Assembly: GCF_047948215.1 (NCBI RefSeq) | Contig: NC_134465.1 | Coordinates: forward strand, 49,073,946-49,137,945 | DNA length: 64,000 nucleotides | Source of the DNA: Lycorma delicatula | Lineage: Eukaryota; Arthropoda; Insecta; Hemiptera; Fulgoridae | Direction: 5' to 3' | Shown: in pieces, positions 9,849 to 56,240 of the stretch | Layout of the letters: each line of letters begins with the position of its first letter | How positions within the stretch are numbered: position 1 is the stretch's first letter | Notes under the pieces: generated by a model | What the model saw: the letters and a program-made list of their open reading frames with translations, nothing else | Told to the model about the DNA's origin: nothing | Database searches by the model: none | Program-made: the position numbers and the translations under genes

Positions 9849-11099
9849 TTTTTTTGTCTTATTTTTTGGCTTCAGTCATTTGACTGGTTTGATGCAGCTC
9901 TCTAAGATTCCCTATCTAGTGCTAGTCGTTTCATTTCGGTATACCCTCTACATCCTACATCCCTAACAATTTGTTTTACATATTCCAAACGTGGCCTGCC
10001 TACACAATTTTTCCCTTCTACCTGTCCTTCCAATATTAAAGCGACTATTCCAGGATGCCTTAGTATGTGGCCTATAAGTCTGTCACTTCTTTTAACTATA
10101 TTTTTCCAAATGCTTCTTTCTTCATCTATTTGCCGCAATACCTCTTCATTTGTCACTTTATCCACCCATCTGATTTTTAACATTCTCCTGTAGCACCACA
10201 TTTCAAAAACCTCTAATCTTTTCTTCTCAGATACTCCGATTGTCCGAATTTTACTTCCATATAAAGCGACACTCCAAACATATACTTTCAAAATCTTTTC
10301 CTGGTATTTAAATTAATTTTTGATGTAAACAATTTATGTTTCTGACCGAAGACTCGTTTCGCCAGTGCTATTCGGCATTTTATATCGCTCCTGCTTCGTC
10401 CATCTTTAGTAATTCTACTTCCTAAATAACAAAATTCTTCTACCTCCATAATATTTTCTCCTCCTATTTTCACATTCAGCGGTCCATCTTTGTTATTTCT
10501 ACTACATTTCATTACTTTTGTTTTGTTCTTGTTTATTTTCATGCGATAGTTCTTGCGTAGGACTTCATCTATGCCGTTCATTGTTTCTTCTAAATCCTTT
10601 TTACTCTCGGCTAGAATTACTATATCATCAGCAAATCGTAGCATCTTTATCTTTTCACCTTGTACTGTTACTCCGAATCTAAATTGTTCTTTAACATCAT
10701 TAACTGCTAGTTCTATGTAAAGATTAAAAAGTATCTGGGCTAGGGAACATCCTTGTCGGACTTATCTGGAGCCTAACTTTTTTAAAATGCTGAACATTTT
10801 ATTCCAGTCTACATTATCGAATGCCTTTTCTAGGTCTATAAACGCCAAGTATGTTGGTTTGTTTTTCTTTAATCTTCCTTATACTATTAATCTGAGGCCT
10901 AAAATTGCTTCCCTTGTCCCTATACTTTTCCTGAAACCAAATTGGTCTTCTCCTAACACTTCTTCCACTCTCCTCTCAATTCTTCTGTATAGAATTCTAG
11001 TTAAGATTTTTGATGCATGACTAGTTATACTAATTGTTCTGTATTCTTCACATTTATCTGCCCCTGCTTTCTTTGGTATCATGACTATAACACTTTTTT
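9849..11099 (-). pseudogene. RTE-type LINE, 5'-truncated, with target duplication
   Basis: Minus-strand reverse transcriptase and C-terminus. The piece 10288-10644 includes the catalytic RFADDIVILAE motif followed by KINKNKTKVMKCSRN. The piece 9902-10291 includes MWCYRRMLKIRWVDKV and GRPRLEYVKQIVRDVG and ends in the 3' tail. An internal deletion of roughly 110 bp near 10765 joins the QGCS region to the region after motif A. Flanks AACTTCAATAC at 9838-9848 and 11100-11110 are an 11-bp target duplication, showing that the truncated copy inserted as such by target-primed reverse transcription. Confidence 0.92.
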
Positions 11100-11559: not shown

Positions 11560-11905
11560 CAGAGTATCACAAAGTACTCCCGAGACGTTCATAACCTATT
11601 CTAGTCGTGAAAATATTGCAAAAAGATCATATAAACATACGTACTAAAATGCTTCGTTGCGAGTTACGGCTAGTGAAATATTTCGCTCGGATTTCAGCTG
11701 TCCTGATGAAATGAGGTCGTACTGAAATATTTAGGATGTTAATTAAAGAGCAGAAATAGTAATTTATTATGGTTTTTGACCCAAAAAATCGAATAAAATA
11801 GGTCTTAGAACCGTATCTATAGTAGTTTTTGAGAAATATGGGGTGAAAACCAATAAACTGAGGTAAAAAACCCTGTTTTTAAGTTTGAAGTACAATAATG
11901 TTGTT
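11560..11905 (+). repeat. repeat F, left part (interrupted by hAT-like element)
   Basis: Aligns by eye with 20217-20600: shared ACAGAGTATCAC start, CGGCTAGTGAAA, and a matching AATCGAATAAAATA stretch. The right part resumes at 12768. Related sequence occurs at 36.1-36.9 kb and 52.6 kb. It has no coding content I can recognise. Confidence 0.8.
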
Positions 11906-12280
11906 CAGTAGCGGCTCGTAGCTAAAAATAGTGGAGATTCTGCTCCATAAAATTTTTTTCTGGGTGTTTTCAAGGCCCTGGTTAAAGTTTTCTGTAAAGT
12001 AAAGAACCGAAAAAAATGAATCAAATACAGTAGCTGGAAGCAGGGTAATAATCTAATTCTACACTTTATCGCATTTAAGAATATGGTACAAGAATAAGCA
12101 CATTGTACTTAAAAAACGTATTCGGTTTATCCGAATAAATAATAAAATGGCATTACAGATAATATTTTTTAGTATTATTAGATAATAATATATCTGCTTA
12201 AAAACTCTATGCTCCAACGGTATTTAATTTAAATTTCTATGTACAAAGAAACAAATACATAATTAGTTTTTACTAATTAC

Positions 12281-12349
12281 CTTCTCTTTCACCCTTCCAG
12301 CGTGTTTCTGGACAGATCTGGCGATCAAAGAGCCCTTGCTTTCCGCCAT
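12281..12349 (-). CDS. Amph: amphiphysin-type BAR protein, first coding exon only
   Basis: The minus strand gives ATG at 12349 and 23 codons reading M-A-E-S-K-G-S-L-I-A-R then SVQKHAGRVKEK, with a GTAAT splice donor right after the last AAG (12280-12276). This is the N-terminal amphipathic helix of amphiphysin/BIN1 proteins, which bind and bend membranes through a BAR domain. Known members have a closely similar N-terminus (..VQKHAGRAKEK in flies), and vertebrate AMPH and BIN1 end their first coding exon at this QEK/KEK position. No further amphiphysin exon was found to the left down to position 1. Because the exon lies inside an insertion with terminal repeats and target duplication, I infer it is a captured copy, not the native locus. 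Frame, start and donor are intact. Confidence 0.75.
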
Positions 12350-12560
12350 CTTCTGATCACTACTGAAAAAACAACTAAACCGCTTTCATATTCCGTCCAC
12401 CGACTAAACTAGAAAAGGGAACGAACAAGGTACATACACACGCGGAATAAAAATAAAACTATCTTCCACCAGTGTCATCACTGCGGGAACAACAGTGCTC
12501 TCTCTCCCTCGAAGTCTCGCGTGCAGCTTTCTACGTGCGCATGCGTACTACAACCAAGTA
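12350..12560 (-). promoter_or_regulatory. candidate promoter and 5' UTR of the captured exon
   Basis: Immediately upstream of the minus-strand ATG, base composition changes from AT-rich to mixed with CpG-containing words. TGCGCATGCGTA at 12536-12547 matches an NRF1-type site in 11 of 12 positions and is its own near-complement. A pyrimidine-rich GCTCTCTCTCCCTC tract lies at 12497-12510. This fits a TATA-less housekeeping promoter, but transcription is inferred only. Confidence 0.45.
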
Positions 12561-12767
12561 CGCCGCTTGAACTGTGAAGCGCACAGTTCTATACAAAGAT
12601 TTTTGTAGATTTTTTATAAACTAGGGGATCGCTCCTGAAATTAGGCTTAAGGATTATATATTGTACAAGTATAAAGAAAAAAGGACTTATTATATTAAAT
12701 GTTATCAATATCAAGTGGAAATAGGGGGTGCTGCAGTTCCATAGTGTCTATATGCGAGCCGCCACTG

Positions 12768-12880
12768 ATTTTGTTAAATGAGTAATAAACACAAAAAAAC
12801 AAAACTTATAGAGAATTTAATTCAAAAAAATAAAGGTTGTATGTATATAATACAGAATGTTATATAAAATAGGTTTTATT
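12768..12880 (+). repeat. repeat F, right part
   Basis: Continuation after the hAT-like element. AAATGAGTAATAAACAC aligns with CAATGATTAATAAATAC at 20574-20590 (14 of 17 bases), and similarity continues through AAACAAAACTT. Confidence 0.75.
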
Positions 12881-13559: not shown

Positions 13560-14400
13560 GATGAACACGGTATAACAACTCATATGTGAGCTGGCACACA
13601 GTATACGGACGCGCTGTTACAAGCATCACTACTGCAGTTCTCCCACTATAGCGGCGCTGCGGCCCCGCCACTCTCAGGCTCCAATAAAAGAGCGTGCACG
13701 AGAGTGAATCTTAAATTCATCGTCCACCACCACCTGGAGAAGATCAAGAAGAAAAAGATGGAAGAAAGAGAAGAAGTTCCCTGGCCGGCCCAACTTGGGA
13801 CCTCCCGGCGGATATCAACATCCCCGCCAGAGTAGCAGGCCCGCCGAGGGAGCCGCTGGACGCGAACGCTACCTTCCCGCTCCAGCTCCAGCTCGCCGGG
13901 TTTCAATCGCCCTTGCCGGCGGACTCAGCAGCAGGAACCGGCCCAGTGTGGGATCGCTCGGGGAGAACCGCCTCGCCCGCGCTGGCGAAGGATGACCGAC
14001 ACTACGGGGCTCTGGGGGCCACCACTTCCACGCTGTAGTGGGGACCCAACTGCCGCTGAGGGAAAGCCCGGTCAGACTTCAATGAACGAGCCGCAACTCC
14101 CCGACTTCGCCGGAGACCAGCTTCCAGACCCAACAACTCTTCTCAGAGCTTACGCAAAAAAAATGGCCCTTTTCAGGGCCACCACAAGGTTATGAATTAC
14201 GAGCCGTCGAAGCTATTCCAAGAAAACAGCCCTTCTCAGGGCTACCAAAAGGTTAGTGATTACAACGAGCTGTCGAAGCCAATCGATGATAAAAACGGCC
14301 CTTTTCAGGACTACCATAAAGTTAAAGTGCCACGTGCCGTTCGAAGCCACTAGGCGACAAAGCACATATTTTTTAGCTGTTGAAAAGTTATTTAAGGGTT
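13560..14400 (+). repeat. unclassified GC-rich block with tandem stem-loops
   Basis: Sharp rise in GC against an AT-rich background. AATAAA sits at 13683-13688. One plus-strand frame from about 13725 to 14350 stays open except for two stops near 14035-14060, with proline/alanine-rich content and then repeated K/E-N-x-P-x-Q peptides. A second frame gives short pieces at 13795-13995 and 13992-14195. I recognise no protein family. It could be part of an LTR retrotransposon or a transcribed repeat. The four stem-loops at its 3' side are listed separately. Confidence 0.5.
14135..14312 (+). promoter_or_regulatory. cluster of four histone-type 3' stem-loops
   Basis: 16-nt stem-loops (6-bp stem, 4-nt loop) at 14135-14150 (one mismatch), 14165-14180, 14228-14243 and 14297-14312 (one mismatch plus a G-T pair). 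The second, GGCCCTTTTCAGGGCC, fits the metazoan histone mRNA stem-loop consensus exactly, is preceded by an A run and followed by ACCAC. The third and fourth also have A-rich 5' flanks and TACCA after the stem. In histone mRNAs this structure binds SLBP and directs poly(A)-less 3' processing. The last three lie in tandem units of about 63-69 bp that share a GTCGAAGC-like end. No histone coding sequence is adjacent. Confidence 0.65.
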
Positions 14401-25130: not shown

Positions 25131-26655
25131 TTTTTCTCTTCGGTCATTTGACTGGTTTGATGCAGCTCTCCAAGATTCTCTATCTAGTGCTAGTCGTTTC
25201 ATTTCAGTATACCCTCTACATCCTACATCCTTAACAATTTGTTTTACATATTCCAAACGTGGCCTGCCTACACAATTTTTCCCTTCTACCTGTCCTTCCA
25301 ATATTAAAGCGACTATTCCAGGATGTGGCCTATAAGTCTGACTCTTCTTTTAACTATATTTTTCCAAATGCTTCATTCTTCATCGATTTACCGCAACACC
25401 TCTTAATATGTCACTTTATGCATCCATATGATTTTTAACAATCTCCTATAGCACCGCATTTCAAAATCTTTTAATCTTTTCTTCTCAGATACTCCGATCG
25501 TCCAACTTTCACTTCCATATAAGCGACACTCCAAACATATACTTTCAAAAATCTTTTCCTGACATTTAAATTAATTTTTGATGTAAACAAATTATATTTC
25601 TTACTGAAGGCTCGTTTAGCTTGTGCTATTCGGCATTTTATATCGCTCCTGCTTCGTCCATCTTTAGTAATTCTACTTCCCAAATAACAAAATTTTTCTA
25701 TCTCCATAATCTTTTCTCCTCCTATTTTCACATTCAGTGGTCCATCTTTGTTATTTCTACTACATTTCATTACTTTTGTTTTGTTCTTGTTTATTTTCAT
25801 GCGATAGTTCTTGCGTAGGACTTCATCTATGCCGTTCATTGTTTCTTCTAAATCCTTTTTACTCTCGGCTAGAATTACTATATCATCAGCAAATCGTATC
25901 ATCTTTATCTTTACATCTTGTACTGTTACTCCGAATCTAAATTGTTCTTTAACATCATTAACTGCTAGTTCCATGTAAAGATTAAAAAGTAACGGAGATA
26001 GGGAACATCCTTGTCGGACTCCCTTTCTTATTAGGGCTTCTTTCTTATGTTCTTCAATTGTTATTGTTGCTGTTTGGTTCCTGTACATGTTAGCAATTGT
26101 TCTTCTATCTCTGTATTTGAACCCTAACTTTTGTAAAATGCTGAACATTTTATTCCAGTCTACGTTATCGAATGCCTTTTCTAGGTCTATAAACGCCAAG
26201 TATGTTGGTTTGTTTTTCTTTAATCTTCCTTCTACTATTAATCTGAGGCCTAAAATTGCTTCCCTTGTCCTTATACTTTTCCTGAAACCAAATTGGTCTT
26301 CTCCTAACACTTCTTCCATTTTCCTCTCAATTCTTCTGTATAGAATTCTAGTTAAGATTTTTGATGCATGACTAGTTAAACTAATTGTTCTGTATTCTTC
26401 ACATCTATCTGCCCCAGCTTTCTTTGGTATCATGACTATAACACTTTTTTGAAGTCTGATGGAACTTCCCCTTTTTCATAAATATTACACACCAGTTTAT
26501 ATAATCTATCAATCGCTTCCTCACCTGCACTGCGCAGTAATTCTACAGGTATTCCATCTATTCCAGGAGCCTTTATGCCATTTAAATCTTTTAATGCTCT
26601 CTTAAATTCAGATCTCAGTATTGTTTCCCCCATTTCATCCTCCTCAACTTCCTCA
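25131..26655 (-). pseudogene. RTE-type LINE, longest copy (reverse transcriptase)
   Basis: The longest RTE copy here. Minus-strand frame 25471-26433 (320 codons) begins inside the reverse transcriptase at IPKKAGADRCEEYRTISLTS, then shows palm motif A FIDLEKAFDNVDW, the GVRQGCSLSPLLFNLY motif and the catalytic RFADDIVILAE, then the thumb region CSRNNKDGPLNVKIGG. The upstream piece 26436-26633 (EFKRALKDLNGIKAPGIDGI) is separated by one frameshift near 26435. The C-terminal tail at 25131-25480 has further breaks. The apurinic endonuclease domain expected N-terminal to this is missing. The enzyme would copy LINE RNA at a nicked target. Confidence 0.93.
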
Positions 26656-43320: not shown

Positions 43321-43624
43321 CAACACAGACGTATCTTAAGAACTTCTAAATAGAAATTTACTCAGATTTATTAAATAGGGTAATTACAAAAAAAACTAAT
43401 TACAATCACGGATTTATGGGTATTACCCAAAAACAAAGGCACTTGGAAGGGTCCAATTTCGCCAAGACCAGACAGACATGGCCAGGCCACGACCAAGGGG
43501 GCAAACAGTCAACCGGGAATACTATGAAAATTTTTTTCAGTAGATTTGAAAATGTGAGGCATGCACTCTGGCGAGACAAGAATTGGATACTCCACCTTTC
43601 TCGATCGCAGAATGTTTGGCCAAA

Positions 43625-44890
43625 TTCCTGTACTTTCGCATCCATCCATCTGATTTTTAACATTCTCCTATAGCACCACATTTCAAAAGCTTCTAATCTT
43701 TTCTTCTCAGATACTCCGATCGTCCAAGTTTCACTTCCATATAAAGCGACACTCCAAACATACACTTTCAAAAATCTTTTCCTGACATTTAAATTAATTT
43801 TTGATGTAAACAAATTATATTTCTTACTGAAGGCTCGTTTAGCTTGTGCTATTCGGCATTTTATATCGCTCCTGCTTCGTCCATCTTTAGTAATTTTACT
43901 TCCCAAATAACAAAATTCTTCTACCTCCATAATCTTTTCTCCTCCTATTTTTACATTCAGCGGTCCATCTTTGTTATTTCTACTACATTTCATTACTTTT
44001 GTTTTGTTCTTGTTTATTTTCATGCGATAGTTCTTGCGTAGGACTTCATCTATGCCGTTCATTGTTTCTTCTAAATCCTTTTTACTCTCGGCTAGAATTA
44101 CTATATCATCAGCAAATCGTAGCATCTTTATCTTTTCACCTTGTACTGTTACTCCGAATCTAAATTGTTCTTTAATATCATTAACTGCTAGTTCCATGTA
44201 AAGATTAAAAAGTAACGGAGATAGGGAACATCCTTGTCGGACTCCCTTTCTTATTAGGGCTTCTTTCTTATGTTCTTAAATTGTTATTGTTGCTGTTTGG
44301 TTCCTGTACATGTTAGCAATTGTTCTTCTATCTCTGTATTTGAACCCTAATTTTTTTAAAATGCTGAACATTTTATTCCAGTCTACGTTATCGAAAGCCT
44401 TTTCTAGGTCTATAAACGCCAAGTATGTTGGTTTGTTTTTCTTTAATCTTACTTCTACTATTAATCTGAGGCCTAAAATTGCTTCCCTTGTCCCTATACT
44501 TTTCCTGAAACCAAATTGGTCTTCTCCTAACACTTCTTCCACTCTCCTCTCAATTCTTCTGTATAAAATTCTAGTAAGATTTTTGATGCATGACTAGTTA
44601 AACTAATTGTTCTGTATTCTTCACATTTATCTGCCCCTGCTTTCTTTGGTATCATAACTATAACACTTTTTTTGAAGTCTGATGGAAATTCCCCATTTTC
44701 ATAAATATTACACACCAGTTTGTATAATCTATCAATCGCTTCCTCACCTGCACTGCGCAGTAATTCTACAGGTATTCCGTCTATTCCAGCAGCCTTTCTG
44801 CCATTTAAATCTTTTAATGCTCTCTTAAATTCAGATCTCAGTATTGTTTCTCCCATTTCATCCTCCTCAACTTCCTCTTCTTCCTCTATA
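43625..44890 (-). pseudogene. RTE-type LINE copy lacking its 3' end
   Basis: Minus strand. Pieces 44527-44856 (EFKRALKDLNGRKAAGIDGI, IPKKAGADKCEEYRTISLTS), 44276-44542 (FIDLEKAFDNVDW) and 43406-44197 (RFADDIVILAE, then MWCYRRMLKIRWMD) cover the reverse transcriptase with two frame breaks. Unlike the other copies it does not reach the SNQSND end: homology stops near 43640 and the frame continues about 78 codons into unrelated sequence. Confidence 0.9.
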
Positions 44891-46608: not shown

Positions 46609-47845
46609 CGAGTTCTGTAAAAAACTTAACGAGTTCTGAAAAAACTTTTTATTTACAAACCGTGGACTTTATCATCTTCAAAATAGTTCCCTTGGGAAGC
46701 CACGCAACGTTTCAAACGGTTTTCTCACTCTTCATAGCAATGTTGGAACTCAGGAACTGGAATATCCTTTAGATGGTAGATTACATTTTACTTAATGTTT
46801 TCTTCTGTTTCAAAATGTCCTTTGAAATGTTTTGTAAAAGTCGCAGGGGCTCAAGTCAGGTGAATAAGGTGCTGAGGAACTAAAGGAATGTTTTTATTTG
46901 CAAAAACTCATTAGCTGAAAGTGCAGTGAATTGTCATGTTGAAGAAACCAGTTGTCTTTGATAACTGGTCTCACGCGGGCAACTCTTTTCCGCAATCTTT
47001 CAAGAATTTCTCGGTAAACATACTGATTCACAGTCTGTCCTGTAGCAAAAACACCTTTTGGAAAATGCCAAACAAATGCCAAATCACGGTTTTGATGTTT
47101 GATTTTCTCATTTTTATTTTTTGGGACGTGGTGAGTTTGAAGTGTGCCACCCCTTGCTTTGGCGTTTTGTTTCTGGGTCGTACTCAAATATCCAACATTC
47201 ATCACCAGTAATAACATATTTTTAGAAAATCAGGATCCGTTTCAATTCGTCCTAGAAGATCAAATTTTTACCCTGTTGTTTTTCTGTTCAACAGTGAGGT
47301 TTTTTGAGACCAATTTTGCACAAACGTTTTTCACGTCCAATTCGTTTATCAAAATTTCACGGACTGTGATACGGTTCAAATTCAATTGTTCTTCAATCAT
47401 TCTGATAGTTAATCGCCGGTCGTACCGTATCAAGAGTCTGATTCGGTACATTGTCGTCACTTTTTGACGTGGATCAAGGGCAACTGATTCCCTGCCATCT
47501 GAAAATGCTTTAAACCACCTAAAACCTCGGGCTCGTGACATTTCGTTATCTCCATACACCGTTTTCAATTTTGGAAAAGTTTCAGTAGCATTCTCAACGA
47601 GTTTAAGACAAAACCTGATTGTACAACGTTGCTCATATTCAGTATCACTGATTTTTGTAAGGCACAACAAAAACCCGTTTCACGAAACGTTTGTTTACGT
47701 CCCACGTGGGAAAAATAGACTAAAATTATTAATACCTAATATACATTAGCTATTCATATAACCATATGTTTACTAGTAACTTTACAGTGTTGCCACTTTA
47801 GCTGCCAAAAAAATACTAGTTTCATTACTTTATTTACAGACCCCG
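46609..47845 (-). mobile_element. mariner element, near full length
   Basis: 1237 bp between TA dinucleotides at 46607-46608 and 47846-47847. Tips are short imperfect inverted repeats: CGAGTTCTGTAAAAAAC on the left and, in complement, CGGGGTCTGTAAATAAAG on the right. Length is typical of mariner. Confidence 0.75.
46620..47670 (-). pseudogene. mariner transposase, decayed
   Basis: Begins near 47670 or a few codons downstream. The 136-codon frame 47260-47670 carries the two DNA-binding helices (RCTIRFCLKLVENATETFPK; RRLTIRMIEEQLNLNRITVR). The frame 46894-47217 carries YREILERLRKRVARVRPVI and the second catalytic region FLQHDNSLHF (usual HHDNAPAH). Frameshifts near 47250 and after 46890; the last part is poorly preserved. 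Enzyme would act on its own TIRs in the nucleus. Inactive as read. Confidence 0.85.
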
Positions 47846-50192: not shown

Positions 50193-50505
50193 AATCTGAT
50201 GTGGATTTAAAAGTACATAAAATTTTATTTCATTAATAATTTCTATTTTTTTAATTGTTATTATTTATCGTAAATTTTTTTTTACAATCGGAGGTTAATA
50301 ATTATTAACAAATCAATATGTTAAAATTAAAAAAAAAGGTTAAAAAAAGTAGATGAAGTCTGATTCGAACCGATGTGCCTCTTGTAAGATCCAAATATTT
50401 CATTAATTAAAATTTTATCTAGCTATAACCCTGGAACCAATGAAATAAGTATCACATGATATATCGTTGAAAAGCTCCCAATTAGGGCTTATTACTGCAA
50501 TTACC
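50193..50505 (-). repeat. repeat C, truncated, joined to a mariner
   Basis: Reverse-oriented partial copy (GAACCGATGTGCCTCTTG, ATATATCGTTGAAAAGCTCC). Its internal end meets the mariner at about 50505, so one of them interrupted or deleted the other. Confidence 0.75.
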
Positions 50506-51105
50506 CCTACTGTTAAAAAAGCAAATCAGCACGGTTTTGATCTTTGATTTGCTTATTCGATATTTTTTCGGTCGAGGAGATGACGGAGTGTGCCACTCTT
50601 CGTTTTGCCGATCATACTCAAATATCCAGGATTCATCACCTGTGATCACGCGATTTAAGAATTGGTCGTTGTCAATCCTCTCAAGATCAACGCACACGTT
50701 TCTTCGATTGTCCTTCTGTTCCGTTGTGAGGTTTTTCGGCACCGATTTCACACAATTCTTTCGCATGTCCAAATCGTCTATCAAAATTTGACGTACGGTG
50801 AAAGTGTTTAAATTGAACTGTTCACACATCGTCCTTATTGTTAAACGACGGTCTGATCTCAGAAGAATCCTCACACGCTCAACGTTTTCGTCAAATTTTG
50901 GAGTTGAAGGTCTCTCTGAGCGAGGTTGATCTTCAACGTGTTCTCGGCTTTCAAAAATTGATATTTGCCAGCGGAAAAATTGTGCTCTTGATAAGCAATG
51001 TTCCCCGTAGGCCTGTTTCAACTTTTCAATTGTCACACTCGCGGATTTCCCAAGTTTAACACAAAACTTGATTGCACAACGTCGCTCTAAATTCCGATCC
51101 TCCAT
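50482..51105 (-). pseudogene. mariner transposase, N-terminal two-thirds, open frame
   Basis: The best-preserved mariner frame here. I start it at the ATG at 51105 (MEDRNLERRCAIKFCVKLGK), where the family usually begins, although the frame stays open further upstream. Helix-turn-helix parts: CVKLGKSASVTIEKLKQAYG and RRLTIRTMCEQFNLNTFTVR. First catalytic aspartate in ITGDESWIFEYDR near residue 155. The frame reaches KTVLICFFNSRG, then runs into repeat C and stops at 50482. The second and third catalytic residues are absent, so no activity is expected. Confidence 0.88.
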
Positions 51106-51296
51106 TTTCGTAACATACAACAAAAACACAAATTCACTGATGGCGCTGTCAAAAATAATGTGTTGGCTGAACGGAGTTGAAACTCGTACTGAGCATGTGG
51201 AAGGGATGAACAAACCGGACTATCACAACCGGTAGACACAGCGTTGCCATATCGCTCACAGTGTTACCATTCTCATTACTTTTCTCACACACCTCG
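50505..51296 (-). mobile_element. mariner element, 3' half missing
   Basis: The outer end at the right reads, in complement, CGAGGTGTGTGAGAAAAGTA next to TA at 51297-51298, a mariner-like tip. The left half is lost at repeat C. Confidence 0.75.
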
Positions 51297-54672: not shown

Positions 54673-55589
54673 TTTTTTTGTCTTCAGTCATTTGACTGGT
54701 TTGATGCAGCTCTCCAAGATTCCCTATCTAGTGCTTGTCGTTTCATTTCAGTATACCCTCTACATCCTACATCCCTAACAATTTGTTTTACATATTCCAA
54801 ACGTGGCCTGCCTACACAATTTTTTCCTTCTACCTGTCCTTCCAATATTAAAGCGACTATTCCAGGATGCCTTAGTATGTGGCCTATAAGTCTGTCTCTT
54901 CTTTTAACTATATTTTTCCAAATGCTACTTTCTTCATCTATTTGCCGCAATACCTCTTCATTTGTCACTTTATCCACCCATCTGATTTTTAACATTCTCC
55001 TATAGCACCGCATTTCAAAAGCTTCTAATCTTTTCTTCTCAGATACTCCGTTTGTCCAATTTTCACTTCCATATAAAGCGACACTACAAACATACATTTT
55101 CAAAAATCTTTTCCTGACATTTAAATTAATTTTTGATGTAAACAAATTATATTTCTTACTGAAGGCTCGTTTAGCTTGTGCTATTCGGCATTTTATATCG
55201 CTCCTGCTTCGTCCATCTTTAGTAATTCTACTTCCCAAATAACAAAATTCTTCTACCTCCATAATCTTTTCTCCTCCTATTTTCACATTCAGCGGTCCAT
55301 CTTTGTTATTTCTACTACATTTCATTACTTTTGTTTTCTTCTTGTTTATTTTCATGCGATAGTTCTTGCGTAGGACTTCATCTATGCCGTTCATTGTTTC
55401 TTCTAAATCCTTTTTACTTTCGGTTAGAATTACTATATCATCGGCAAATCGTAGCATCTTTATATTTTCACCCTGTACTGTTACCCCGAATCTAAATTGT
55501 TCTTTAACATCATTAACTGCTAGTTCCATGTAAAGATTAAAAAGTAACGGAGATAGGGAACATCCTTGTCGGACTCCCTTTCTTATTAC
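54673..55589 (-). pseudogene. RTE-type LINE with long open frame and target duplication
   Basis: The minus-strand frame 54684-55619 (311 codons) is open through the whole copy: GVRQGCSLSPLLFNLYMEL, RFADDIVILTE (catalytic DD retained), CSRNNKDGPLNVKIGG, MRCYRRMLKIRWVDKV, GRPRLEYVKQIVRDVG and the complete terminal WRAASNQSND. 5'-truncated within the reverse transcriptase. GATCAGTAGGT at 54662-54672 and 55590-55600 is a perfect 11-bp target duplication. The open frame and exact duplication suggest a young insertion. Confidence 0.94.
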
Positions 55590-55600
55590 GATCAGTAGGT

Positions 55601-56240
55601 AGTGGAGAAATACATACAAATCGTTTATAAAACTTCAAAGAAAAAATCAAACGGGTTTAGATTAGGTAATACCTTAGAAACCACCGCATACAAGCTGTGT
55701 CATCGACTACGTCCCGAACGATTCAGCGATCGGGGAAAACGTCATTCGATCAATCCAAACAGAGTTATGACAATGAGGAGGCGCCGGATGTTGTTGGCAA
55801 ATAAAATTCTCCGAACAATTTTGCATTTGAGGAAAGAACCGTGTACCCAGCAACTTTAGTTACTCTCGCTCTAGCGAAAAAAAAATAACCCGTAAATTTG
55901 CCGTCGGAATATCGCTCAGAAAACATTTATACAACGCTAATATTTATGTCCTGAAAGTTTATACCATTCTTTTTTCTTTCTCTCTGGAAACTTAGATTCT
56001 CGAATCACTTTTCTAAATGTATCTCTCTGTCTTTATATAGATCTTTAGAAATGTTTAATGTTTTTAGATCTCCTTCTATTATTTAAACCGGTGGGTCTTT
56101 GTGGCTCTGTTTATGCAGAAATTAAATATTCGTTTTATCAATCTTTGGTCGTTCATAATTAAGTTGCTTTATTATTATTTCCATAAAATAATAGTAAACC
56201 TTTAACAATTTGTTTTTTTTAACCTTCCCTAAAATGGGAA
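55601..56240. other. unassigned sequence
   Basis: An 85-codon plus-strand frame at 55602-55859 has no recognisable domain. The remainder is AT-rich. Confidence 0.4.

What the first reader, a model, noticed from the sequence alone, without database searches (positions are those of the whole stretch)
11906..12767. hAT-like element carrying an amphiphysin first exon with splice donor and promoter-like sequence
Seen: CAG-tipped 15-bp inverted ends (13/15), 8-bp flanking duplication (7/8), and inside, on the minus strand, an ATG-initiated 23-codon exon reading ..SVQKHAGRVKEK with a GT donor at the position where known AMPH/BIN1 genes break. Known: this N-terminus is diagnostic of the amphiphysin BAR family. 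Inferred: a non-autonomous transposon has captured the promoter, 5' UTR and first coding exon of a host gene (transduplication). If it is multi-copy, it could spread promoters with a start codon, a membrane-inserting helix and a donor that can splice into downstream genes.
Basis: partly seen in the sequence, partly recalled or inferred. Interest (0 to 1): 0.85.

Follow-up and report, generated by a model that had tools for sequence, protein, structure and literature searches.

The report
Jumping gene carrying amphiphysin's first exon
In the spotted lanternfly, a small cut-and-paste transposon has picked up the start of the amphiphysin gene (start codon, 23 amino acids and a splice site) and copied it to many chromosomal sites, so ready-made gene starts lie scattered across the genome; whether they are used is not known.

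Summary
The 862-bp element has hAT-type inverted ends and an 8-bp duplication (7/8). A 40-copy consensus has perfect 13-bp ends and encodes MAESKGSLIAKSVQKHAGRAKEK|GT, the insect amphiphysin N-terminus. Duplications fit nTnnnnAn, the Hermes-type hAT target. The native Amph gene lies elsewhere (C9, exon 1 about 319 kb before exon 2). It matches the consensus over 323 bp at 98.5%: 94 bp of 5' flank, exon 1 and 160 bp of intron. So this is a multicopy Pack-hAT (transduplicate). One claim fails: the GC-rich promoter-like block is absent from the native locus and 9.4 kb upstream, so it is not shown to be the Amph promoter. No chimeric protein was seen; no RNA could be tested. Closest precedent: bat Helitron HelibatN3. 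Promoter or exon-trap activity is inferred.

The parts
11906..12767 (-). whole element, non-autonomous hAT-type; sense direction taken as that of the exon
   Evidence: 862 bp; consensus of 40 copies 901 bp, this copy 91.3% to it; no ORF of 90 aa or more listed inside
12755..12767 (-). 5' terminal inverted repeat CAGTGGCGGCTCG
11906..11918 (+). 3' terminal inverted repeat (CAGTAGCGGCTCG here; CAGTGGCGGCTCG in consensus)
12768..12775 (.). target-site duplication, right copy ATTTTGTT
   Evidence: 7/8 match to left copy
11898..11905 (.). target-site duplication, left copy ATGTTGTT
12439..12585 (-). GC-rich, CpG-rich promoter-like block, with an NRF1-like TGCGCATGCGCA in the consensus; source unknown, not shown to be from Amph
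   Evidence: consensus 195-351 (157 bp there); no significant match in native locus or 9.4 kb upstream; motif name recalled
12586..12595 (-). copy of the 10-mer TGTATGGAAC (one mismatch here) that also begins the captured Amph piece in the consensus (185-194 and 352-361)
12129..12438 (-). piece captured from the host gene Amph: 5' flank, exon 1 and start of intron 1 (consensus 352-674)
   Evidence: consensus piece 318/323 identical to native locus C9:22363857-22364179 (L158:1407-1729); window coordinates
12281..12349 (-). Amph first coding exon, 23 codons, phase 0
12279..12280 (-). splice donor GT of the captured exon
   Evidence: same GTAATT in native gene; GT kept in 34 of 40 copies
11992..11993 (-). 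acceptor-like AG after a pyrimidine tract (consensus TTTTATTTTACAG); possible internal intron of 301 bp in the 63-copy consensus
   Evidence: AG kept in 54 of 62 copies with letters there, close to the mean of other AG/GT pairs (84%)

Best explanation
A non-autonomous hAT element acquired 323 bp of the Amph gene (end of the 5' flank, exon 1, donor, start of intron 1) in an ancestor of L. delicatula. It was then moved many times by a hAT transposase supplied in trans (a Pack-hAT or transduplicate family). Shown: ends, 8-bp duplications with the hAT target pattern, many dispersed copies, a separate native gene, sharp capture borders. Inferred: capture by template switching or gap repair, an unseen transposase source, one old burst of copying, and that a copy landing upstream of, or in an intron of, a gene in sense direction could act as an alternative first exon by splicing from the carried donor to a host acceptor.
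For: The element hits 40 distinct places including itself (40 of 5598 first-look candidates scored), most over nearly its whole length, the others at 79-85% identity to it. 147 further rows match the exon-1 peptide (residues 1 to about 29; one row 1-43; 150 of 2784 candidates scored). Together they are 179 distinct places after removing 7 overlaps and the native exon. Of 27 exon-1 places fetched as sequence, 26 were element copies and 1 the native exon. Consensus ends are perfect over 13 bp. Duplications of at least 7/8 in 16 of 33 two-ended copies, against 1.7% in shuffled pairings; pooled 26 of 52. T at position 2 in 16 of 26 and A at position 7 in 19 of 26, as in the nTnnnnAn of Hermes (PMC2803484, passages). 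Native exons 2-4 sit in order on C9, and the annotated Lycorma Amph (P0123) starts with the consensus exon peptide.
Against: No transposase partner with these ends and no exon-less parental element is known: no transposase search was run, and the genome searches for the block and the 3' part did not complete. Half of the two-ended copies (26 of 52) lack a clear duplication, expected for old copies but not proven. The native noncoding part is far less diverged from the consensus (3/254) than the copies (6.7%), so one common neutral clock does not fit. For the functional step there is only negative evidence: no chimeric protein.
Confidence: 0.93

Rival explanations
1. The window holds the native Amph gene, and the inverted ends are chance.
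For: Exon, donor and conserved peptide look genuine.
Against: Exons 2-4 and a 98.5% matching exon 1 lie on C9; this window is on C11; the same ends flank the exon elsewhere.
Confidence: 0.01
2. The element is a functional mobile promoter / first-exon donor: the GC-rich block drives transcription from some copies and the donor splices into host genes, giving alternative or N-terminally altered transcripts.
For: Consensus keeps ATG, 23-codon frame and GT donor; 32 of 40 copies keep ATG, a frame without stop, and GT (my count from the per-copy list). Fewer amino-acid changes (117 against 155 +/- 11 simulated, P 0.002), stops (3 against 9.5, P 0.014) and lost ATGs (1 against 7.5, P 0.002) than a neutral simulation. 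One indel event in the exon, a count that 32 of 792 same-length windows (the exon among them) do not exceed. HelibatN3 in bats makes such transcripts (PMC4778049, passages).
Against: GT loss is at the neutral rate (6 against 5.8, P 0.65) and synonymous changes are too (56 against 52). No chimeric protein seen; no RNA evidence. Copies share some variants, so sites are not independent and the P values are optimistic.
Confidence: 0.3
3. Dead freight: the Amph piece is a silent passenger and spread only because the ends are good transposase substrates.
For: The exon diverges nearly as fast as the rest (6.1% against 6.9-7.1%, CpG left out); donor and acceptor-like site are kept no better than other AG/GT pairs. 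Copies are old (88-95% to consensus).
Against: The mild deficit of amino-acid changes, stops and lost ATGs.
Confidence: 0.6
4. Two captures: the GC-rich block is the promoter of another host gene and the Amph piece was added next to it, making a composite promoter-exon cassette.
For: Block is CpG-rich with an NRF1-like motif (name recalled), without a match in native Amph and 9.4 kb upstream; bounded by a repeated 10-mer TGTATGGAAC.
Against: No source gene found, because the genome search for the block did not complete. The block could be part of the original hAT element, or the native promoter could lie further away or have been lost.
Confidence: 0.4

Closest known systems
HelibatN3 (bat Helitron with NUBPL promoter, six codons and splice donor)
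   Same: Non-autonomous element carrying the 5' end of a host gene with start codon and donor; Helitrons in that bat amplified promoter pieces of 15 genes to 4,690 copies (PMC4778049, passages read)
   Different: Helitron there (5'-TC/CTRR-3' ends, insertion between A and T), hAT-type inverted ends with 8-bp duplications here; 23 codons here; native promoter not shown to be carried here; transcript evidence exists there, none here
Pack-TIRs of animals, including Pack-hAT-N8_XT and Ssk-FB4
   Same: Inverted-repeat DNA transposon carrying a host fragment with a separate parental copy (PMC8277862: start of abstract in listings, passages, section 9)
   Different: The two multicopy cases whose copy numbers I saw have three derived copies (Pack-hAT-N8_XT) and four copies (Ssk-FB4); here at least 179 exon-matching places
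Pack-TYPE / Pack-hAT elements of plants
   Same: Captured coding DNA between transposon ends (PMC8903248, search listing with start of abstract only)
   Different: Plants; copy numbers and donor capture not compared here
Hermes/hobo hAT elements
   Same: 8-bp nTnnnnAn duplications (PMC2803484, passages)
   Different: No transposase gene here; end sequence not compared with theirs by any search

Membership tests
hAT superfamily (non-autonomous) | 8-bp target-site duplication | tested here: met
   26 of 52 two-ended copies at least 7/8, 12 exact; 16 of 33 against 1.7% shuffled
hAT superfamily (non-autonomous) | short terminal inverted repeats | tested here: met
   13 bp perfect in consensus
hAT superfamily (non-autonomous) | target preference nTnnnnAn (Hermes/hobo type) | tested here: met
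   T2 16/26, A7 19/26 against an assumed background of 35%; reference PMC2803484 passages
hAT superfamily (non-autonomous) | related autonomous element with hAT transposase and the same ends | not tested
   no transposase search was run; the genome search machine gave no answer
Pack-TIR / transduplicate | host gene fragment inside inverted ends, with a separate parental locus not flanked by those ends | tested here: met
   native C9 locus matches only the captured piece; end search there 13 and 11 mismatches in 25
Pack-TIR / transduplicate | repeated transposition as a unit (distinct duplications) | tested here: met
   different 8-bp duplications per copy
Helitron (HelibatN3-like) | no inverted ends, insertion between A and T (as in PMC4778049 passages) | tested here: not met
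   inverted ends and 8-bp duplications
mobile exon trap / promoter donor | transcripts starting in the element and spliced from its donor into other genes | not testable with these tools
   no RNA data; two limited protein searches showed no chimera
amphiphysin (BIN/AMPH) gene | exon 1 peptide followed by BAR-domain exons | tested here: not met
   no exon 2 found in the window; exons 2-4 are on C9

The most novel reading that the evidence does not exclude
A composite cassette (a foreign CpG-rich promoter joined to the Amph first exon with its membrane-inserting helix and donor) was assembled inside a hAT element and spread over the genome. Some copies now serve as alternative promoters and first exons, attaching the amphiphysin N-terminal helix to unrelated proteins, and the coding part was kept by selection.
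Probability: 0.15. Interest if true: 0.88.

Novelty: new variant of a known kind. Interest (0 to 1): 0.7.

Why it matters
It gives an insect parallel, in a different transposon class, to the bat Helitrons that spread a gene's 5' end. For the two multicopy animal captures by inverted-repeat transposons whose copy numbers I saw in the 100-genome survey, these were three and four. Because parent locus, sharp capture borders, consensus and many old copies are available in one chromosome-scale genome, it makes two open questions testable: how cut-and-paste transposons capture host DNA, and how often ready-made first exons with a donor become new gene starts. It also warns annotators: of 27 inspected Lycorma matches to the amphiphysin N-terminus, 26 were transposon copies.

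Tried and rejected
Native-locus reading: rejected. Capture of the Amph promoter: rejected as stated, since homology stops 94 bp before the ATG and 9.4 kb upstream holds only weak chance-level matches (E 0.08 or worse). Looser scoring runs the native match on to consensus 698 at 95.7%; I read the last 24 bp as chance extension. Nine proteins without a BAR domain that share the exon (P0122, P0125, P0126, P0128, P0129, P0131, P0134, P0135, P0142) looked like chimeras, but all read on after the exon as EKV..., as past a GT, so I take them for genomic read-through in other insects. The scan of viral contigs for a 15-base form of the end gave 96 stretches, 80 listed, which I take for chance matches and did not inspect. 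Copy number: a hand-made Chapman estimate from the two samples (40 and 146, overlap 7) is about 750; the samples are not random, so it is an order of magnitude only. The padded protein searches admit candidates of about 131-416 and 395-1256 aa that share short exact words with the exon, and scored only 49 and 69 proteins, so chimeras from changed copies could be missed. The last result was judged by its Pfam column and names, not by reading sequences. Selection test: suggestive only. Not achieved: source of the GC-rich block, exon-less parent, transposase partner, genome-wide count.

Full report
Observation. The peptide matches Drosophila amphiphysin (1uru) residues 1-23 at E 9e-5. No later Amph exon was found in the window, and no ORF of 90 aa or more is listed in the element.

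Host. The window is on contig C11 of a 2.2-Gb, 14-contig genome. An annotated Lycorma delicatula amphiphysin (P0123) comes from a contig of 133,192,330 bases, the exact length of C9, so the host is the spotted lanternfly.

Copies. The element hits 40 distinct places including itself (40 of 5598 candidates scored; one place appears in two pieces), most over nearly the whole length. The Amph protein query gives three places for BAR exons 2-4 and 147 rows for the exon-1 peptide (150 of 2784 scored). The union, without 7 overlaps and the native exon, is 179 places on 13 contigs. These are lower bounds set by the tool's scoring limit. I read 40 places of the first set as sequence and 27 of the second, of which L162 repeats L127 and L158 is native: 65 distinct element copies in all. 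The remaining places are known only as exon-1 matches.

Anatomy. MAFFT of 40 copies gives a 901-bp consensus with perfect 13-bp ends; copies are 88-95% identical to it, mean pairwise identity 86%, no pair above 90%. With 63 copies the picture is the same (of 25 extra copies 2 were dropped by a span filter, the duplicate and the native locus having been left out before; highest pair 91%). The consensus exon is MAESKGSLIAKSVQKHAGRAKEK, the canonical insect form; the window's R11 and V20 are changes that also occur in some other copies. Duplications: 16 of 33 two-ended copies at least 7/8, against 1.7% for shuffled partners; 11 of 20 in the second set, the repeat L162 included; pooled without it 26 of 52, with T at position 2 in 16 of 26 and A at position 7 in 19 of 26. 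That is the Hermes-type target nTnnnnAn (PMC2803484, passages).

Parent locus. L158 (C9:22363951, plus strand) matches consensus 352-674 at 318/323 with no transposon ends. It lies about 319 kb upstream of exon 2 (C9:22683307), in the same orientation, and its peptide begins the annotated protein. So the captured piece is 94 bp before the ATG, exon 1 and 160 bp of intron 1. The element's GC-rich block (consensus 195-351) has no significant counterpart in the native locus or 9.4 kb upstream. It may come from another gene, from the original element, or from a promoter the native gene has lost; the search that would decide did not complete. Two junction marks are worth keeping: the 10-mer TGTATGGAAC stands both before the GC block and at the start of the Amph piece, and the 3' border carries an inverted repeat ATTCGGTT/AACCGAAT. 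Both would fit template switching, which PMC8277862 proposes for multicopy animal Pack-TIRs (section 9 read), but do not prove it.

Evolution. Outside CpG, copies differ from the consensus by 6-7% in every part tested. A neutral simulation from the flanking spectrum expects more amino-acid changes (155 +/- 11 against 117), more stops (9.5 against 3) and more lost ATGs (7.5 against 1) than seen, while synonymous changes (52 against 56) and donor loss (5.8 against 6) are as expected. Shared variants make the copies non-independent, so I call this a hint. The native noncoding piece differs from the consensus at only 3 of 254 sites, against 6.7% in copies: native constraint or a lower native mutation rate; unexplained. 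At one of these sites (position 416 of the 63-copy consensus) 22 of 63 copies carry the native base, so that site may be an old variant.

Function. Splicing from the carried donor into a host gene would add 23 residues; in amphiphysin this N-terminus is known (recalled) to insert into membranes. No chimeric protein was seen among 49 and 69 hits, a limited test, and no RNA is available. I therefore rate active exon donation by at least some copies at about 0.3 and passive freight at 0.6.

Literature. HelibatN3 in bats carries the NUBPL promoter, six codons and a donor; Helitrons in that bat amplified promoter pieces of 15 genes to 4,690 copies, and some drive transcripts (PMC4778049, passages). 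PMC8277862 reports 370 Pack-TIRs in 100 animal genomes, four of them multicopy, plus Ssk-FB4 in fly populations (passages and section 9). The listings of searches (open-licence papers, capped lists, titles and abstract starts) name no such family; subscription papers and preprints were not covered. The Lycorma genome paper PMC6791401 (passages) has no occurrence of 'transposon' in its main text.

Noticed in passing
L158 (C9:22362451-), native Amph 5' region: Native 5' flank and intron-1 start differ from the transposon consensus at only 3 of 254 sites although copies differ by 6.7%: unexpected conservation of noncoding sequence around native exon 1.
   Followed up: partly
G000 C9:22364019-22683307: Native Amph exon 1 and exon 2 are about 319 kb apart; annotated isoform P0123 has ten extra residues (VKSSSLQFRK) between the exon 1 and exon 2 peptides, suggesting a microexon.
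   Followed up: no
window 11992-12280, minus: Acceptor-like CAG after a pyrimidine tract 301 bp downstream of the donor in the consensus; splicing there would give a frame open to the element's end (32 of 59 copies open), so the element could be a two-exon unit.
   Followed up: partly
window 10291-10761, 25474-26475, 43409-44275, 54687-55634, all minus: Four pieces of a reverse-transcriptase (LINE-like) family in the same orientation, Pfam RVT_1.
   Followed up: partly
window 47263-47679 and 50485-51219, minus: Partial Mos1/mariner-type transposase pieces (Pfam HTH_48).
   Followed up: no
window 13646-14195: GC-rich stretch with several overlapping open frames and no Pfam match for the one frame tested (13836-14192); contains GAGTTGCGGCTCG at 14087 (minus), two mismatches from the element's end sequence.
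   Followed up: no
L127 / L162 (C9:34221475-34222356): A copy with near-perfect ends and exact duplication ATCACTGG on both sides but a mutated donor (AT).
   Followed up: no
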